A model generated the notes under the pieces. That model saw only the letters and a program-made list of their open reading frames with translations, was not told where the DNA came from and did no database searches. Source: a bacterium (GTDB taxonomy: Bacteria; Planctomycetota; UBA11346). From it: a stretch of DNA of 7,216 bases. Where the stretch lies: NCBI GenBank assembly GCA_020049615.1, contig JAIFKN010000082.1, positions 1 through 7,216 on the forward strand. The letters are read 5' to 3'. Position numbers and translations under genes: made by a program. Positions 1-7,216 of this stretch are shown piece after piece. Within the stretch, counting starts at the first letter, position 1; the number at the start of each line of letters is the position of its first letter.

Positions 1-1
1 C

Positions 2-148
2 GACCTCATCCGCGAGCAGGCCAAGGACGGCCAGATGCTCGACGCGTGGAAGACCCCCCTGCGCTACCGCCCGTCGAAGTGGTATCCCTACACTGCTACG
101 AGCGCCCCAATGCCGCGTGCTGACCGCCTGGGAGCCTCCAAATGCTGA
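2..148 (+). CDS. GspG-like pseudopilin, C-terminal fragment (5' end outside window)
   Basis: Frame 2 is open from the window edge and gives 48 residues ending in a TGA at 146-148. The segment DAWKTPLRYRPSKWY matches the DPWKKPLRYRPSKFY segment of the next gene (residues 147-161). This is the conserved C-terminal strand region of the GspG major pseudopilin family (DPWG-type motif), so the fragment is a paralogue of the downstream gene. Similarity is clear in protein but diverged in DNA, which points to an old tandem duplication. The stop looks premature: the paralogue goes on for about 40 residues past this point with LWSAGPD and DDIPQW, and those pieces are found here in other frames beyond the stop. 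In known systems GspG subunits form the shaft of the pseudopilus in the inner membrane and periplasm. The N-terminal methylation segment is not in the window. Confidence 0.8.
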   Translation, partial: DLIREQAKDGQMLDAWKTPLRYRPSKWYPYTATSAPMPRADRLGASKC

Positions 149-274
149 CTGCTCCACTTTGGTCCGCTGGCCCGGACGCTCAATCTGCGGCTGAGCTGGC
201 AGCGCCGGGACATCACCCCCATCTCCGAATCGCAAGCACAGACAGCCCCATGCTACGCCGCGCCTTCACCCTGA
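122..274 (+). pseudogene. Frame-scrambled C-terminal tail of the upstream GspG-like gene
   Basis: Aligning this stretch with the 3' end of the next gene (about 760-886) recovers its C-terminal motifs in successive frames. Frame 2 gives PRAD. Frame 3 gives EPPNAD (paralogue NPPGAD). Frame 1 from about 160 gives LWSAGPDA (identical in the paralogue). Frame 2 again from about 215 gives RDITPI (paralogue DDIPQW), running to a TGA at 272-274. By hand alignment, about one extra base lies between 124 and 140, about two bases are missing around 150-160, and one more shift lies near 205-215. The cause is either decay of the real gene end or several sequencing indels. The consequence is that the open frame from ATG 142 to 249 is upstream-gene tail, not part of the next protein. 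A GGGAG at 130-134 lies 7 bases before ATG 142 and looks like a ribosome site, but I read it as coincidental. Confidence 0.6.
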
Positions 275-888
275 TCGAGCTCCTCGTCGTCATCGGCATC
301 ATGATCACGCTCATGAGCCTGATCATGGGCGGTGTCATGCTGGCCAAGCGCAGCGCCATGCGCGCTAAGGCGGTGTCCCTGCTCGGGACAGTAGCCAGCG
401 CGGTCGACCAGTATCGAACGCTGAACAGCAGCTATCCCGAGAGCTGGACGGTGCCGGCGACCCCGCCCACCGCATGGACGGATGCGTTCAGCGCGGCCGG
501 TATTAGTTCCCCCCCGTCATCGGGCACGGAAGTCTACGGCGGCGTGTTCGTGCTGAGTGTTGGCCCGCCTATCGAGTACAAGGGCGCGGAAAACATCTCG
601 AACGACGCCTGGAAGGTGATCAACGTCCAACTCGCGTATCAGTTGGCGTCGTTGATCAGCGACAGCGTCAAAGAAGGACAGCTTATAGACCCCTGGAAGA
701 AGCCGTTGCGGTATCGGCCATCCAAGTTTTATAAGTACGACGGCCCGGCTACGCCACGCGTCGACTCAACAAACCCCCCAGGCGCTGACAGCTTCCAACT
801 GTGGTCCGCAGGCCCGGATGCGACGGACTATCAGGCCGATCCGGGCGAGGGCGGCGATGACATTCCCCAGTGGGTAAAGTCGCGGTGA
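250..888 (+). CDS. GspG-like type II secretion/type IV pilin-like major pseudopilin
   Basis: The 212-residue protein begins MLRRA followed by FTLIELLVVIGIM, a class III prepilin leader and N-methylation helix. Cleavage would fall after Ala5, Phe6 would become the methylated N-terminus, and Glu10 is the conserved mature Glu5. The hydrophobic helix covers about residues 6-30, then a coiled helix to about 60. The C-terminal third carries the GspG hallmarks: DPWKKPLRYRP (147-157), LWSAGPD (184-190) and GDDIPQW (202-208), the loop that binds calcium in known GspG proteins. In that family the protein is processed by a prepilin peptidase and polymerises into the pseudopilus. The same frame is open back to ATG 142, but I chose ATG 250 because it gives a normal short leader and because 142-249 encodes the tail of the upstream paralogue. 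No strong ribosome site precedes 250. At about 212 residues it is longer than the usual ~140-150, owing to an extra Pro/Ser-rich middle (about 66-120). The frame ends at a GTGA overlap with the next open frame. Confidence 0.88.
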   Translation: MLRRAFTLIELLVVIGIMITLMSLIMGGVMLAKRSAMRAKAVSLLGTVASAVDQYRTLNSSYPESWTVPATPPTAWTDAFSAAGISSPPSSGTEVYGGVFVLSVGPPIEYKGAENISNDAWKVINVQLAYQLASLISDSVKEGQLIDPWKKPLRYRPSKFYKYDGPATPRVDSTNPPGADSFQLWSAGPDATDYQADPGEGGDDIPQWVKSR

Positions 889-902
889 CCAGAATCCTGG
901 CA

Positions 903-2270
903 ATGAGCCAGCGCTCATTGGGGCGCTCCCCGGCCGTAGCGGTTGAGGACGTTCGTCCGTGCGCACGCGGACGGAAGTGGGCTGTAGCCTTCACCCTCAT
1001 AGAACTCTTGGTCGTCGTATCTATCATGATGTTGTTGATGGGCCTCGCGATTGGTAGCGTGGTGCGTGGGCCAAAGGTCAATGCCTTGGTTGGTGCCGAG
1101 CAGGCCCTCGCTGGCGCCGTCCGTCAGGCCCGACACACCGCTCGCACGAGCGGCCAACCGGTGGTCCTGCTGTTGTCTGCCAAGGATGGCACCATTGCCG
1201 GTCTACTGCGCACCCCGCTGTGGTCGCGCAGTGATGACTGGCCTGGTGTTGAGTTCACTACTGGCAGTGGCCCTGAACCAGCTCCAGGGCGCACGGGCGA
1301 GGGCTTGGTGCTGCCCGAGGCCTTCGCGCCAGGCCAAGACGCGATCAAGCTGGCTGGCGGCGTGCTCTCTGGACCCAGCAGGCTGGCGCGTGGTGTTCCG
1401 TCCGCGGCCCAGGTCGGCGCCCCGAGACTGTTGTTGTCGGCCTGGGTACGCCCGCCTTTGGCCGGACTACCACATCCAGAAGTCATCCCGGTGGTCCACG
1501 TTGGGGATGAGGAGGTCACCCCAACCGCCGCCTTTGGCAGCGTCACAAACAGCGCTATCGGCCTGTTGTTGCTGCGTGCTGACGGCATTGGCGCCACTGC
1601 CACAGCGACCCAACAGACGACCGCCGGCGCTAAGGCTCCGACAACACCGACCTGGGAGGTACTTGGCTGGATTATCGACTCCGGTGGCCAACGGCATGAG
1701 GTTTCATCGGTGCTCGATGCGCCGCGAGACCAAAGTCGGGCCGAGGGCACAGTCAATCTTATCCGCCTCGCCGGTGGCGCTGTTGATTCCAACTATAGCG
1801 GCGAGGATCTTGCTGGCCCGTTAGTCGGAGGTTCCTGGACGGAGCTCACCCTGTTGTTCGATCGTGGCCGATTGGTGCTCTACCGTGATGGTCGTCGCGT
1901 TGGCGAGAAGTTGATCGATCCGGCACCAACCGCCCTACGCGACGCTGGGCCGGATGGCGAACGCGTCTTCGTCGGACATGTCAGCATCCCAAGTGTAACG
2001 GTGGCTGCCGCGCCGGGCGGCACAGTGCAGCTTGATGACGCACGCCTTGAACGCCTCGGCACCGAGCTGGCCGGTCGCCTGCCCGGCGGCGTGTTGCCTC
2101 TGGCGGATCGCGTCATCACGTGCCACCCCGACGGCCGTGTTGAGGTGGATGCAGGCACTGACGCCAATACTGACATCTTGCTGCGCTCGAATACCGGAGA
2201 TGCGGTCATTACCGTTTCCATCTCTGGCCAGGTGGCGTCGCGGGTAGTGCTGCCCGAGGTTGCGCCATGA
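903..2270 (+). CDS. GspH/FimT-like pseudopilin with inserted LamG (concanavalin-like) domain
   Basis: Taken from ATG 903 the product is 455 residues. A 29-residue basic leader precedes FTLIELLVVVSIMM, with cleavage after Ala29 and Glu34 as mature Glu5. The following helix has ALAGAVRQARHTARTSGQPV (68-87), the GspH/FimT pattern of a basic helix leading into the first strand. The family's C-terminal strands appear only at 404-443: ITCHPDGRVEV, then DILLRSNTGDAVITVSISGQV. Between them (about 130-385) is a LamG/concanavalin-like beta-sandwich with LLLSAWVRPP (176-185), SWTELTLLFDRGRLVLYRDG (311-330), FVGHV (356-360) and QLDDARLERL (376-385). LamG domains often bind glycans or other surface ligands; the ligand here is unknown. 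GspH proteins are normally about 170-200 residues and act as minor pseudopilins near the tip. Alternative starts are GTG 885 (overlapping the previous stop as GTGA) and GTG 870. The 3' end overlaps the next gene as ATGA, suggesting translational coupling. Confidence 0.85.
   Translation: MSQRSLGRSPAVAVEDVRPCARGRKWAVAFTLIELLVVVSIMMLLMGLAIGSVVRGPKVNALVGAEQALAGAVRQARHTARTSGQPVVLLLSAKDGTIAGLLRTPLWSRSDDWPGVEFTTGSGPEPAPGRTGEGLVLPEAFAPGQDAIKLAGGVLSGPSRLARGVPSAAQVGAPRLLLSAWVRPPLAGLPHPEVIPVVHVGDEEVTPTAAFGSVTNSAIGLLLLRADGIGATATATQQTTAGAKAPTTPTWEVLGWIIDSGGQRHEVSSVLDAPRDQSRAEGTVNLIRLAGGAVDSNYSGEDLAGPLVGGSWTELTLLFDRGRLVLYRDGRRVGEKLIDPAPTALRDAGPDGERVFVGHVSIPSVTVAAAPGGTVQLDDARLERLGTELAGRLPGGVLPLADRVITCHPDGRVEVDAGTDANTDILLRSNTGDAVITVSISGQVASRVVLPEVAP
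2256..2269 (+). promoter_or_regulatory. Ribosome binding site and ATGA overlap for the GspK-like gene
   Basis: GAGG at 2256-2259 lies 7 bases before ATG 2267-2269. That ATG overlaps the TGA stop (2268-2270) of the GspH-like gene. The site fixes the start, and with the 4-base overlap it argues for coupled translation of the H-like and K-like proteins. It is the clearest ribosome site in the window; the other starts have weak or none. Confidence 0.6.
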
Positions 2271-3967
2271 ACCGGCAAGGCGCTGCCCTGGTGATCGCGT
2301 TGGTGGTGCTGGCTGCACTCCTGTTCCTGGCGCTGCCCTTCGTCTACAGCCAGTCGGCTAGCCTCGCCGGGGCGCGTTCCGCTGGCTGGGGCAACCAGGC
2401 CCAACGTGGCCGCTCTGCCGCTGAACAGCACGCCATCGCCGTCGTGGCGCAGGTGAATACTCTGCACCTGACCGACCAACTTGGCGCAGCCCAGCGCACC
2501 TACAGCTCGTTGGCCGACAATCTCATCTACGATGCTGGCCAAATCGGACTTGGCTTTGAGCGAGAGCCAGCGCGCTTTACCTTCCCTCCAGCGTCTCCAG
2601 CGGCGCCGAATGCAACCAGCGGCGTTGAAGTCGAGGACGAGCAGTCCCGCCTGGACGCCAACGCTCTGGGCCCCAGCGCTTGGGCGCAGTTGCTGGCCGC
2701 AGCGCAGATTTACGACCCGCCAACGTGGCGATGGGAATGGGGAGCGGTGCCTAGTCCGCGCACGAGCGTCATCACTGACTGGGGCGCTTTTGCTTCTGAT
2801 CCGCTGCCCTATGGTCGCCTCTCCATCGCTTTGGCAAAGCATCGTGGGCGGATCCCCGGTGGACGTTACGTCTCGCTCGACCAACTCCTTGGCGCCGATT
2901 CGCGCCGGCCCGCGGCCGACCAGGCTCCGTTCGGCTACATCGAATACGGCGCAGGTCATCATGACCGTGACACTGGTCACCCACTCGTAGAAATGGCGCC
3001 TCCCGTCGGAGGTGGCATCACCGACTGGGTGGCCCAGATTTACGGTGCCGGCGGCTTGCTCGACCAGCAAGGTCCCTTTCGCGATGCGCCGCCCACCCGC
3101 ATTGAGTTGGAGCGCCTGCGCGCCTTCCTCACCGTCCACACCCTCGGCCAAGGCCGCAGCGGCATCGCTGACCTTGGCACAACCCTGGTTGTTAGTGCCT
3201 TCGACGACGCCAGCGTCGGCGACGTGGTTGGAGGCGATCTCATCCCTGCCTGGGGCTGGGTCACTGGTATCAGCACCGATGGAACAGTGCGGCGCGGGCG
3301 GCGCCATACCGACAGCAACTGGATCCAGACCTTCGGTGGCGGTGGGCTAGCTGATGCCGGTGGCGTGATAGCAGTCGAGGTGGCTCCAACAGTGAACATC
3401 AACCTGATCGCGGGTGGTTCGCCTGTGGCACGGGCCCTCGGTTGGACGGGGACCGGATTGACGCTGTTCACCGCCCTGCACACACTGCCCGGGCTTGGCT
3501 GGTGCGATCCCGGTCGCGGGCTGGGTCACGGTCGCGAACCGGTGCCACCTGTGTCGGTGGCAAGCTTGGGCGTGGTGTCGGTCGATGCGGCGGCGGCGGC
3601 GCGTGAGGCGGGCTGGCTGCAAGCGAGCCGATCCCGTCGTTCCGTGGTACAGGCTGTGCCACAGGAGCGCGCCATCGAGCGCCGCTGGCGTACCCAGGCT
3701 GACCTTGAGTCCGACTTGAGGCTGAACCGATCCAGCGGCATGCAGAGTGGCCCGCATCCGGTGCGGCGGGTCAGTGACTTCGCCTCCGACGCGACGCTCA
3801 CCAATCTACTCCGTGATCCCGGCTGGCTAGCCCCAGCGTCTCCCGCGACTGGCGCGCTGTCTTTGGCGCCACAACGGCGCAGGGTTCAGCCAATGTGTTC
3901 CATCCCCAAACGGGCAACAATCCCACAAGCGAAAGCGGCTGGAGCTCGGCTAGTCTTCAATGGCTAG
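2267..3967 (+). CDS. GspK-like minor pseudopilin, N-terminal part (frame 2; apparent frameshift near its end)
   Basis: The open frame encodes 566 residues. The start MNRQG then AALVIALVVLAALLFLALPF (6-25) is a GspK/PilX-type signal: cleavage after Gly5, and Ile instead of Glu at mature position 5, as is typical of the GspK tip subunit. The helix continues with an Ala-rich face (36-62), followed by VEVEDEQSRLDANAL (120-134), which fits the GspK pattern of an Asp-Glu then Arg/Lys-Leu-Asn-Asn strand. GGRYVSLDQLLG (198-209), LERLRAFLTVHT (281-292) and VNINLIAGGSPVARAL (376-391) fit the later GspK helical core and its N-x-N-x-x repeat. About 80 extra residues separate the last two. Residues 426-485 (PPVSVASLGVVSVD, VVQAVPQE, ERRWRTQADLESDL) look like an extra beta domain. 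After about residue 522 (DPGWLAP) the frame-2 product turns Arg/Pro-rich and implausible, while frame 1 becomes coding. Its final ~44 residues and the TAG at 3965-3967 are therefore probably not native. In known systems GspK caps the pseudopilus with GspI and GspJ. Confidence 0.82.
   Translation: MNRQGAALVIALVVLAALLFLALPFVYSQSASLAGARSAGWGNQAQRGRSAAEQHAIAVVAQVNTLHLTDQLGAAQRTYSSLADNLIYDAGQIGLGFEREPARFTFPPASPAAPNATSGVEVEDEQSRLDANALGPSAWAQLLAAAQIYDPPTWRWEWGAVPSPRTSVITDWGAFASDPLPYGRLSIALAKHRGRIPGGRYVSLDQLLGADSRRPAADQAPFGYIEYGAGHHDRDTGHPLVEMAPPVGGGITDWVAQIYGAGGLLDQQGPFRDAPPTRIELERLRAFLTVHTLGQGRSGIADLGTTLVVSAFDDASVGDVVGGDLIPAWGWVTGISTDGTVRRGRRHTDSNWIQTFGGGGLADAGGVIAVEVAPTVNINLIAGGSPVARALGWTGTGLTLFTALHTLPGLGWCDPGRGLGHGREPVPPVSVASLGVVSVDAAAAAREAGWLQASRSRRSVVQAVPQERAIERRWRTQADLESDLRLNRSSGMQSGPHPVRRVSDFASDATLTNLLRDPGWLAPASPATGALSLAPQRRRVQPMCSIPKRATIPQAKAAGARLVFNG
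3587..3601 (+). repeat. (GCG)5 trinucleotide run encoding an alanine stretch
   Basis: Five consecutive GCG codons lie in frame 2 and encode alanines at residues 441-445 of the GspK-like protein. The run keeps frame and is a small low-complexity spot in a GC-rich gene. It may vary in length between strains. Confidence 0.7.
3817..3967 (+). other. Interval holding the -1 frameshift that joins the two parts of the giant GspK-like gene
   Basis: Frame 1 has a TGA at 3814-3816 and frame 2 has a TAG at 3965-3967, so any join must lie between them. Frame 2 reads plausibly to DPGWLAP (to about 3834). Frame 1 reads plausibly from SRDWRAVFG (3841 on), followed by FHPQTGNNPTSESGW (3898-3942). The simplest repair is one extra C in the CCCC run at 3831-3834, which would read GWLAPSVSRDW. 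No canonical X-XXY-YYZ slippery heptamer is visible here, so a mutation or a sequencing/assembly indel is more likely than programmed frameshifting. Confidence 0.7.
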
Positions 3968-6900
3968 GCGCAGCTTCCGCTGTCGGCGCGGTCGGTACTC
4001 CGGGTTCACTCGGCCCACAGGGCGTCACTGTGCAAGGGCCAGGAGAGGTGGTCTATCGTCTGCCCACGAACGGCGGAGCGCTGATCTTCCGCAGCAGCAA
4101 CCCCGATGATCTCATTCCCCGTCATCTTAGCCTGCGTTTCCGGCTGGAGGACAGCGGCCCAGCGACATTGCTGGAGGCTCGCCAGAAGGTGGATCCGACT
4201 CGCGAGGACCAGTTCCTGTTCCGCCTCCGCTACGAACCCGGCATGCTGGTGCTCGACATGGCAAACGCCGCCTTCGGGTGGCCCGCCGATCATGCCTGGA
4301 CGATGCTGGCGGATGATCCGGCCACGCCGGATATTGATGAGCGCTGCCTCCCAGGCACGCAGAACCTCGCGCCGGCTTGGCCGACCAGCCAGCGTGTCGA
4401 GTTCCGCTATCGGGCGATTCTCCAGCCCGGGCGGTTCCACCAAGTGCAGCTCTGGTACGCATCCGAGCAGCCTGGCCACCACGGGCTAGCTCTGGATGGC
4501 GTCATCGGCCGCGATGCGATCTCAGCCGGTGCTTTTGATCAGTTGGGCGACCACTACACCTTCCCCTCGTTGCGTCTTGACGAGGACATCGACAAGGTCG
4601 ATCCGCGTGATCCGCTTACCGGCTTCGGCACCGTCTTGTCGCAACCCGCGATCATCGACCTCGTCCCGCCGCCCGGCTTGACTGTCGCGGACGTCCTCCC
4701 GGCGCGCGGCCTGATCCGCATCAACGATGAGTTTTTCAGCTACGAAGGCATAAGCGGCACCACGCTCACCGGCGTGCAGCGGGCGCGGCGGGCAAATACC
4801 GATCAGGAGGCAGTCAAGCCGCTGATGACGGACCCGGGGCCACCGCCCACCTTCACCAACGTACCCGACCCCGACAAACGCTGGCCGTGGACACAGCGTC
4901 ATCTCCGAGGTGCTCTGGTCTTGCCTGGCTGGACAGGTATAAATGTCCAGAATGGCCAGTGGCTGCGCGGTAAGGTGGCGCTGGTCGGCCCGCGCGAGCA
5001 GCCCACCCAGGCCCTGCCACCGCAGCCGCCCTTAGCTGCGGTCCCGACTACCGGCATGCCGGCTGGAACAGGTACTGGCACCATACTGTGGAACCGTCCA
5101 ACCAGTGTCACCATGACCCCTATCGCCTGGCCTGACGAGACGACGACCTGGACGTGGGGCGATCGCGGCTACCTGGAGTTCTGGATTGTCGGCGACCTCT
5201 CCGGCCGCACCGGACGATGCTATTTCATCCGCTCCGGTACTGCGCTGACCCTGGATTGGGACAAGGGACCGCTTTGCGATGGCGGTGTGTGGAACGATGT
5301 CGACGGCAGCTTCGAGGTCCGTGCCATGCAGGTCAGCATCGAGGTCGACGGCGAGGTAGCTGATGCCGGCACGAACCGCCGCCGCTTCACTGGCGACGGC
5401 CTACTCCAGATCCTGGATGGATCAACCGGACGCTGCGAATGGATCCGCTACACGCATCGCGTCGACCACGACACCGATGGGCGCTTCTTCGTTCGTCGCA
5501 ATGGCGGCTTCGGACGCGACCGAGCGGCACCGCCGGTGCCGGAGGCCCTGGTCCGCGGGGCTATGCGGACACCCTGGCGCGATGCCGATGCTTGGCCGGA
5601 TGGTACGTTGGTGCTGCCGGTGCAGACGCAGCTGTCAGCACCGACGGTGCTGGAAAGCGGCGACATCTGCAGCTTCGTTCCTAATCGCCTTGATGCCACG
5701 GCCTCGGCCGTGCCGTTACAGATGGTGGTGCGGCACGCCGCCCGCGACGGCTACCCGCTAGTCGACGATCCCAATGGCGAGCGCTACGACGTTAACGGGA
5801 GGTATTTCGCTCTGGCGGACAAGCTGCCCGACGACCTGATCGATCCTCTGGTGCCGTCGCCCAACGAGGCCACTTCCCGACCTGGCAGGCTCCTAGTCGG
5901 CCGGGGCTGGCGGGGATACGATCTCAGTCCGGTTGCGCCGACCAGCGATCGTCGCGGACAAGGTGTGAGGCGCAGCGGTCTGGCCACCGGGTTTACCGCC
6001 GACGATGCGGTCCTGGTTTTCGGCGGCACTGGCGCGCGGGTGACGGTGGACGATGTTGTGGCTGGCCCCATCGCCGGCGATGCCGACACCTCTGCCGGGT
6101 GTCGCATCACCACGATCGAGAACCAGGAGATCCCCTCTGCCGGCATCGCGACTTTCCCACAGCGAGTGACGGCCAACTCCGGCATCTTCACTCGGAACTA
6201 CGGTCTGGTGCAGATCGACGGCGAGGTATTCGCCTATCGCCGGGCATCGAACAACGACGCTGATCTCATCGCCCGGGCCCTGCTTGGCAGCCAGCCGCAG
6301 CGGCACGCGCTGCCAGTCGAGGCCGACCAGACCATCACCATTGCCGACCGGACCGACCAGGTGCAGCATGGCCTCCCCGTGACACCGCTGCCGATCGGGC
6401 CGGTGGCCGAGTTCCTCGGAAACGGCTACACAAGCAACGTGTCGTTGCTGCCAGGCATGGCCGCCACCACGCCCGTCGGCCAACGCGGCGCACTCGGCGA
6501 CGACATCGAACTGTGCGACGAGACATACGATAGCTACCGCAACGACGGCAGGCCGCGGAACCAGCATCAGAGAACGGGCGGCAGTCCGGCGGTGTTGGGG
6601 GCTCCGGTGCAACTCATCCACCATCCTGGTGACGGCAGCGCCGAGGTGGTGCGCTTCGTGCGCCACCCCGACATGCCCCAGATGGTGACCGCGCCCTGGC
6701 TGCGCGGTCTGTACGGTAGCTCAGTAGGCGGGTGGACCGCAGCCCACACCATACTGCGTCGGCCCTACTGGGTACCGAATCCGAATCCCCCGGGTGATCT
6801 GCCGACCTGGCAGGCCCCTCTCAACGGAAGCGGAAGCGTCAATCCTATTGCCATTGGCCTTTGGCCCCGCTTCGCTGCGCCACGTGTTGATCTCAATCTA

Positions 6901-7216
6901 ACGAGCACCTCGCTTAGCGCGCAGTTGCGCTGTCGCAGCTATGGTTGGGCCTCGTATGCTCTGCGCTTGCACGGCACGCGCTTCTGGCCCACCGAGTTCG
7001 CTGCCGTCGGGGCGATGCCGTCCGCTGCCAAGGTCGCCGAGACCGACATTGATAGTCTGGGCGGTGCCGCCGCCATCGAGGCCCGCGCCCACGCTCAGGG
7101 TATCGGCGGGTTGGAGTTCGCAGACTGGGGAACCTCGACGTCGCAGCTGTTGTCGGCCCTCGGACTGGGCGGGCTAGACGCCACCTTCGACATCGACCGC
7201 TTCAACGTGCGAGATA
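3817..7216 (+). CDS. Giant C-terminal extension of the GspK-like protein (frame 1, no stop, runs off the window)
   Basis: I translated frame 1 line by line and found no stop from 3817 to the last base: about 1,133 codons, with G/C favoured at third positions and a normal soluble composition. No good start codon with a ribosome site opens this frame; the first in-frame candidates are GTG 3895 and ATG 4258, both inside sequence that already looks coding. I therefore read it as the continuation of the gene starting at 2267, giving a protein of at least about 1,650 residues. The order of segments is: a concanavalin-like beta segment (about 4051-4600); a first Glu/Tyr-Arg module (about 4680-4815); a proline-rich stretch (4990-5060); two TGRC strands (about 5200-5230 and 5425-5455); further modules near 6202 and 6625; and a last segment ending FDIDRFNVRD at the edge. 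There is no transmembrane helix, so the whole extension would lie outside the inner membrane. I recognise no enzyme motif. As a surface-binding or tip-display structure its role is inference. Confidence 0.75.
4051..4600 (+). other. Probable concanavalin/LamG-like beta-sandwich segment in the giant protein
   Basis: Frame 1 encodes EVVYRLPTNGGALIFRSSN, then LSLRFRLED, FLFRLRYEPGMLVLDMAN, VEFRYRAILQPGRFHQVQLW and GLALDGVIG. The alternating strands ending in a G-R-F-H-x-V-x-L-x-Y unit and a V/L-x-L-D-G turn resemble LamG-type sandwiches. They parallel the SWTELTLLFDRGRLVLYRDG unit in the GspH-like protein upstream. Sequence similarity to classic LamG is weak, so the fold assignment is tentative. 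Confidence 0.4.
4708..4818 (+). repeat. Diverged Glu-Phe-x-Tyr / Arg module, copy 1
   Basis: Frame 1 encodes GLIRINDEFFSYEGISGTTL and then TGVQRARRANTDQEA. The pattern is a Gly-Leu strand, Ile-x-x-Glu-Phe-x-x-Tyr, a GISGTTLTGV turn, then an Arg-rich tail. The same pattern appears in many phage tail and surface proteins as an E-x-x-x-Y-T-G...L-x-G-V-x-R-G module. The best-matching second copy is at 6202-6312. Confidence 0.55.
5203..5457 (+). repeat. Paired TGRC-x-x-IR strands
   Basis: Frame 1 encodes GRTGRCYFIRSG at about 5203-5238 and GSTGRCEWIRYT at about 5419-5454. The DNA shares ACCGGACG-n-TGC and ATCCGCT in the same register about 220 bases apart, which fits two copies of one structural unit. 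A third cysteine (PLCDGG, about 5269-5286) lies between them. Confidence 0.5.
5398..5550 (+). repeat. Diverged module, copy 2, with a TGRCEWIRY strand
   Basis: Frame 1 encodes GLLQILDGSTGRCEWIRYTH, then DTDGRFFVRRNGGFGRDRAA. It shares with the other copies the Gly-Leu-(Leu/Ile/Val)-x-Ile strand, the Glu-x-Ile-x-Tyr strand and a final Arg-Asn/Arg-Gly-x-x-Gly tail. It differs by the inserted TGRC. It is a weaker match than copies 1 and 3. Confidence 0.4.
6202..6312 (+). repeat. Diverged Glu-Phe-x-Tyr / Arg module, copy 3
   Basis: Frame 1 encodes GLVQIDGEVFAYRRASNNDA, then DLIARALLGSQPQRHALPVE. It matches copy 1 in Gly-Leu-(Ile/Val)-x-Ile-(Asn/Asp)-(Asp/Gly)-Glu-x-Phe-x-Tyr and in the Leu-x-x-x-x-Arg-Ala spacing, and it keeps the terminal His of the phage-type module. 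Copies 1 and 3 are the most confident pair. Confidence 0.55.
6625..6771 (+). repeat. Diverged module, copy 4, with LRGLYGS and AAH tail
   Basis: Frame 1 encodes PGDGSAEVVRFVRHPDMPQM, then APWLRGLYGSSVGGWTAAHT. Glu-Val-Val-x-Phe replaces the Glu-x-Phe-x-Tyr strand. The Leu-Arg-Gly-Leu-Tyr-Gly-Ser...Ala-Ala-His tail is the most complete version of the Arg-Gly-x-x-Gly-Thr-x-x-x-x-His ending seen in the phage-type module. Confidence 0.45.

What the first reader, a model, noticed from the sequence alone, without database searches (positions are those of the whole stretch)
2267..7216. Hidden giant GspK-like tip pseudopilin of at least ~1,650 residues, split by one frameshift
Frame 1 is stop-free from 3817 to the window end and picks up where the GspK-like frame 2 becomes implausible. 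Rejoined, this is one protein with a GspK-type N-terminus and more than 1,100 extra residues, several times the family's usual length. A tip subunit of this size would make the pseudopilus a carrier of a large extracellular structure rather than a simple secretion piston. The open frame and the motifs are seen in the sequence; the joined protein and its role are inferred.
Basis: partly seen in the sequence, partly recalled or inferred. Interest (0 to 1): 0.8.

Follow-up and report, generated by a model that had tools for sequence, protein, structure and literature searches.

The report
Giant tip protein of planctomycete pseudopili
The window holds one very large pilus-tip-like gene, broken in this copy by a small frame change, that belongs to an unnamed family common among planctomycete bacteria and may help them grip sugars or surfaces.

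Summary
Frame 2 (2267 to about 3835) and frame 1 (about 3820 to the window end) are two halves of one gene. Of 44 related proteins, 43 match both halves in order, and codon usage changes frame near 3820-3850. The halves were always tested apart. The gene encodes a GspK-like tip pseudopilin of about 1,700 residues (the GspK model has 307 positions) in a GspG-like, GspH-like, giant K cassette, usually followed by a GspJ-like gene in relatives. It is no one-off: of 198 Planctomycetota genomes, 108 have a strong match in an open frame of at least 1,200 residues, although no family model covers it. The roughly 1,130 extra residues are mostly beta, with a lectin-type (LamG/concanavalin) fold and a repeated beta module. 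Most likely it caps a type II/type IV filament and displays a large glycan- or surface-binding ectodomain; that role is inferred. The break looks like a small out-of-frame loss (relatives carry about ten more residues there). Whether it is real or an assembly error is open.

The parts
250..888 (+). GspG-like pseudopilin (start at 250 by my reading; the mechanical ORF starts at 142)
   Evidence: NCBIfam GspG TIGR01710 E 2.8e-8, 33.8 bits, below cut-off 88.85; sequence
870..2270 (+). GspH-like pseudopilin, large, with a weak LamG match
   Evidence: TIGR01708 E 3.6e-6, TIGR02596 E 1.6e-7, both below cut-off; Laminin_G_3 E 0.031, below cut-off
2267..3835 (+). N-terminal part of the giant GspK-like tip pseudopilin (frame 2), start overlapping the stop of the GspH-like gene
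3817..3850 (+). place where the reading changes from frame 2 to frame 1 in this copy
   Evidence: codon usage; relatives read through with about ten more residues
3838..7216 (+). C-terminal part of the giant protein (frame 1), cut by the window end
   Evidence: mostly beta in the predicted model, pLDDT 64, pTM 0.67
4012..4596 (+). probable LamG/concanavalin-like domain (limits approximate)
4708..4785 (+). first copy of a repeated beta module
   Evidence: hhalign with the copy at 6202-6279: 80%, E 1.4e-5, 26 columns
6202..6279 (+). second copy of the repeated beta module

Best explanation
The window carries a pseudopilin cassette of a Planctomycetota-like bacterium whose K member is a giant modular tip pseudopilin. 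Shown by computation: one ancestral gene over both frames; a GspK-like N-terminal part; a large beta-rich extension with a lectin-type fold; the cassette order; a family spread over the phylum. Inferred: a prepilin peptidase cuts after the short leader, the GspK-like core caps the filament with its J partner (and I where present), and filament growth pushes the roughly 1,150-residue ectodomain out through a secretin, where its lectin-like and repeated beta modules hold glycans or surfaces. In this copy the frame is broken, so the organism makes a shortened protein, or the full one if the break is an assembly error.
For: 43 of 44 relatives match both halves in order; codon usage change. GspK model matches in 14 of 16 phylum relatives, best 6.6e-12; three XcpX chains top the structural second look. 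GspH-like gene directly upstream in 21 of 23 order loci with sequence there, GspJ-like directly downstream in 14 of 21; similar in 14 of 16 and 14 of 17 phylum loci. LamG-type fold. Secretin, T2SSF and PilT family in 23 of 23 order genomes, prepilin peptidase detected in 19 of 23.
Against: All GspK model matches lie below the curated cut-off (with 76); the N-terminal model is poor (pLDDT 52) and plain Foldseek found nothing significant. LamG is found by sequence in only 1 of 15 order relatives, at 0.049. Seven of 21 order loci show no detectable J. Nothing shows export, tip position or a ligand.
Confidence: 0.65

Rival explanations
1. The filament is a retractable type IV pilus rather than a type II piston, and the giant K unites in one chain the jobs that a small minor pilin and the separate PilY1 adhesin share elsewhere. 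This changes the machine, not the tip-adhesin idea.
For: PilT family over its cut-off in 23 of 23 order genomes. An MglA-like GTPase and an MglB-like Roadblock protein stand upstream of the cassette in 4 of 26 order loci; MglA stimulates type IV pili in Myxococcus (abstract in the listing). No PilY1 match in 198 and 23 genomes.
Against: The best-matching models are type II ones (GspG, GspH, GspK). The PilY1 searches had no positive control that rang, so absence is not shown. PilT genes were not shown to be linked to this cassette.
Confidence: 0.4
2. The giant extension stays in the periplasm as a scaffold or substrate-recruiting part of a type II piston.
For: In known type II systems GspK caps a pseudopilus (PMC8179133, passages). 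Nothing here shows export.
Against: Lectin-type folds and long beta chains are usual in exposed adhesins (general knowledge), and the tip is the part that first meets the outer-membrane pore.
Confidence: 0.2
3. In this organism the gene is truly broken and makes only the 566-residue frame-2 product or nothing useful.
For: Relatives carry about ten more residues at the place, so a real small deletion is possible. A second GspG-like copy at 1-180 is also broken in frame.
Against: Frame 1 stays open over 1,133 codons and keeps the family's conserved residues; two breaks in 7 kb also fit an error-prone assembly.
Confidence: 0.4
4. Two separate genes lie here, the second with its own start near 3895.
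For: A GTG at 3895 in frame 1.
Against: The stretch just before it (from about 3838) already aligns with relatives, 43 of 44 relatives are single chains over both halves, and the frame-2 tail after the break has no aligned counterpart in P0001 beyond the place.
Confidence: 0.03

Closest known systems
GspK / XcpX, type II secretion minor pseudopilin (NF037980, PF03934)
   Same: N-terminal leader, hydrophobic helix and DE.GK.N.N-type stretch; place in a pseudopilin cassette; XcpX chains top the structural second look
   Different: About 1,500-2,300 residues instead of a 307-position model; large beta extension; below curated cut-offs; order G-H-K-J instead of the usual G-H-I-J-K (the usual order is recalled)
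Verru_Chthon cassette protein A (TIGR02600)
   Same: Very large protein (1,296 positions) of a cassette in the sister phylum (name and phylum recalled from the model title); N-terminal match in 9 of 16 phylum relatives at E up to 1, best 1.6e-4
   Different: Where coordinates were seen (3 of 5 scanned), only the first 63-74 positions match, far below the cut-off of 332 bits
Modular pilins (PilB, PilC of Streptococcus sanguinis; CofB)
   Same: Pilin part carrying a grafted module, among them concanavalin-like lectins (PMC8179133, passages)
   Different: Much larger; the most extreme multi-domain case named in those passages has 860 residues; the extension here has no family model of its own
PilY1 tip adhesin of type IV pili (PF05567)
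   Same: Proposed job only: large adhesin at a filament tip
   Different: PilY1 is not a pilin and has a beta-propeller domain (PMC8179133, passages); no PilY1 match in the proteins scanned

Membership tests
GspK (NF037980) | score over the curated cut-off of 130 bits | tested here: not met
   window 15.6 bits; best relative seen with its score 45.6 bits
GspK (NF037980) | usual length of about 300 residues | tested here: not met
   relatives 1,586-2,198 aa in 39 of 40 hits; model 307 positions
GspK (NF037980) | prepilin leader and hydrophobic N-terminal helix | tested here: met
   sequence in window and relatives
GspK (NF037980) | encoded with other pseudopilins | tested here: met
   window G-like and H-like genes upstream
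GspK (NF037980) | GspK fold | tested here: inconclusive
GspK (NF037980) | tip position in complex with I and J | not testable with these tools
   needs experiment
Verru_Chthon cassette protein A (TIGR02600) | score over the curated cut-off of 332.3 bits | tested here: not met
   8.6-18.5 bits in 3 of 5 scanned; order relatives 2 of 15, best E 0.23
Modular pilins | pilin N-terminal motif as defined by its family model | tested here: inconclusive
   no Pfam hit in the window K pieces; GspK-like N-terminus by other models
Modular pilins | extra domain not specific to pili | tested here: met
   LamG-type fold of the window's frame-1 model; Laminin_G_3 in 7 of 16 phylum relatives, best 5.7e-7, but 1 of 15 order relatives at 0.049
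PilY1 (PF05567) | PilY1 domain in the protein | tested here: not met
   no PilY1 match in the window pieces or in the order and phylum giants scanned

The most novel reading that the evidence does not exclude
Across Planctomycetota the filament tip is a single giant pseudopilin that merges the tip-capping minor pilin with the adhesin, and its lectin-like ectodomain is the polysaccharide-catching end of the pili-like fibres on the crateriform structures, where dextran was seen to bind.
Probability: 0.2. Interest if true: 0.85.

Novelty: new variant of a known kind. Interest (0 to 1): 0.6.

Why it matters
A family of proteins of about 1,500-2,300 residues, strongly matched in more than half of the Planctomycetota genomes sampled, has no family model and mostly appears as 'hypothetical protein' where a source names it. 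If it is a filament tip, it offers a concrete gene for an open question of planctomycete cell biology: what the pili-like fibres on the crateriform structures are made of and how they bind large polysaccharides (Boedeker et al. 2017, PMC5394234, passages). It would also take the idea of modular pilins (PMC8179133, passages) to a much larger scale.

Tried and rejected
Two-gene reading: rejected. The long open frame as proof in itself: rejected, because antisense frames over 2,000 codons occur in this GC-rich DNA. Programmed frameshift: considered, not supported; relatives read through and differ by about ten residues at the place; I made no dedicated search for a slippery site. Fold matches of the C-terminal model to clostridial neurotoxin binding domains: the same lists hold laminin G, neurexin, thrombospondin, pentraxin and sialidase carbohydrate-binding modules, so I read this as the common lectin fold only, not as a toxin relation. 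Sequence search of solved structures with the N-terminal family gave three matches, all at E above 1. Segments R2 and R4 of the ectodomain showed no repeat relation to R1 or R3 (nine of ten pairs at 6% or less). PilY1 absence is not claimed, since no control rang. Foldseek on the N-terminal model gave nothing significant. Papers: in the listings of searches I saw no title or abstract start on a giant GspK or pseudopilin in Planctomycetota; most subscription papers are missing there. None of the ten papers listed held the phrase Verru_Chthon cassette.

Full report
OBSERVATION. The window (7,216 bases, about 65% GC) holds three genes on the plus strand: a GspG-like pseudopilin (start at 250 by my reading, end 888), a GspH-like one (870-2270), and a third that begins at 2267 inside the stop of the second. 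The third runs in frame 2 to a stop at 3965-3967, while frame 1 is open from 3817 to the window end. Codon log-likelihood, trained on the window's own genes outside 3700-4000, favours frame 2 up to about 3820 and frame 1 after that. In GC-rich DNA long open frames also arise on the wrong strand, so relatives were needed.

ONE GENE. The frame-1 piece, searched alone, found 20 proteins, 19 of them 1,611-1,847 residues long. The frame-2 piece aligns with the start of the same proteins (34% identity to P0001, residues 1-575) and the frame-1 piece with the remainder (39%). Cut at 3835 and 3838 and compared separately, 43 of the 44 proteins found match both pieces in order; P0019 matches only the second, and some distant proteins match only part of each. 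Relatives carry about ten more residues between the pieces, so a short stretch seems to be missing here, in the organism or in its assembly. The window's own genome is not held, so I cannot decide. The tail of a second GspG-like copy at 1-180 is also broken in frame, which fits local decay as well as an error-prone assembly.

HOW WIDE THE FAMILY IS. A scan of genome contigs with P0011 gave one locus, from a Planctomycetota MAG. In the order of that genome, 20 of 23 genomes (itself included) match, and 18 of the 23 have at least one uninterrupted frame of 1,600 codons or more, up to 2,310; several hold two. A profile of 11 relatives (five found in the protein search, six from order loci) rang in 82 of 199 genomes drawn evenly from the phylum; outside the order the matches were mostly short, to the N-terminus or to internal modules, many of them inside open frames of 1,300-2,400 codons. 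I fetched 18 such places: 17 gave a giant frame with a GspK-like start, 1,528-2,092 residues, and L060 gave none. Sixteen of them (without L056 and L060) form alignment A6, whose profile aligns with that of the window's order over 1,385 columns, 100% probability, E 1.5e-56. A profile of 11 of these giants (A8) matched 167 of 198 phylum genomes at E 0.001 or better. The printed part of that table, down to about 6e-56, names 113 genomes; 108 of them have an open frame of at least 1,200 residues, and 49 have one match over nearly the whole model (tallied from a hand-copied list). Eleven genomes of the window's order lie outside that count because they match A8 only weakly. Where a source gives a name, it is 'hypothetical protein', with one 1,408-residue protein called pseudopilin PulG.

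SURROUNDINGS. In 26 order loci a GspH-like gene lies directly upstream in 21 of the 23 with upstream sequence (not in L025, L046), and a GspJ-like gene directly downstream in 14 of the 21 with downstream sequence (not detected in L025, L027, L029, L033, L035, L042, L046) (read). Of four J-like proteins scanned, two match the GspJ model (2.3e-5, 6.5e-5) and two only general prepilin models. In the 18 phylum loci an H-like or prepilin gene is directly upstream in 14 of 16 with upstream sequence (not in L062, L065), a J-like or prepilin gene directly downstream in 14 of 17 (not in L063, L065, L066), and a further prepilin motif follows in 11 of 18 (read). A DUF4388/TPR protein stands upstream in 7 of 26 order loci, preceded in 4 by an MglA-like GTPase (solved MglA, E 1e-69) and a Roadblock protein near MglB (1.7e-22, below cut-off); many loci end before that point. 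The 23 order genomes have secretins (23), T2SSF (23), PilT family (23) and a detected prepilin peptidase (19). So both type II and retractable type IV machinery seem available, and which builds this filament is not settled.

MECHANISM. Most likely the GspK-like core caps a type II/type IV filament and the large ectodomain is carried out at the tip to bind glycans or surfaces. Shown by computation: gene unity, GspK-like core, lectin-type fold, cassette, machinery. Inferred: cleavage, tip position, export, ligand. Planctopirus limnophila has 12-nm pili-like fibres on crateriform structures, and gold-labelled dextran was found primarily at such fibres there and in Gemmata obscuriglobus (PMC5394234, passages); the passages that I read name no gene for them. 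[quoted passage not shown] Linking the giant tip protein to such fibres is my proposal.

KNOWN OR NEW. Modular pilins with grafted modules, lectins among them, are known, and GspK itself is counted among them (PMC8179133, passages); the most extreme multi-domain case named there has 860 residues. Verru_Chthon cassette protein A is a curated model of 1,296 positions, but only its first 63-74 positions match where coordinates were seen. The present family is therefore a new variant of a known kind: much larger, widespread in the phylum and unnamed.

Noticed in passing
window 1-180: Tail of a second GspG-like copy, matching the intact one in frame 2 (5-109, 54% identity) and then in frame 1 (157-180), so it too is broken in frame.
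   Followed up: partly
window 870-2270: The GspH-like pseudopilin is also large (466 aa) with a weak LamG match, so two members of the cassette may carry lectin-like modules.
   Followed up: no
L030:162-3442, L024:55-1945, L040:624-3973: An MglA-like GTPase with a long C-terminal extension (459 aa, MglA match to residues 2-190 in L030) and Roadblock proteins stand upstream of the cassette; a possible polarity switch for the filament.
   Followed up: partly
L030:3505-7110, L024:1973-5563, L031:2-3571: A protein of about 1,200 aa sits between the MglA-like group and the cassette; in L030 it has DUF4388, TPR and PQQ/BamB-like matches.
   Followed up: no
G005:C47:7966-13669, G016:C33:57847-63560, G017:C297:83532-89107: Runs of three neighbouring secretin genes in several genomes of the order.
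   Followed up: no
G002 C1 and C3, G005 C64 and C65, G003 C16 and C56: Several genomes hold two diverged giant K genes, so the cassette has been duplicated.
   Followed up: no
L064:7832-12415 and L062:7165-12015 (giant proteins, residues 1275-1296 and 1369-1393): The end of the Rcc01698_C model, a phage-tail-like family by recollection, matches inside the giant proteins.
   Followed up: no
L027:7869-14408 and L063:3149-10516, minus strand: Antisense open frames of 2,179 and 2,456 codons over the giant genes; a trap for gene callers.
   Followed up: partly
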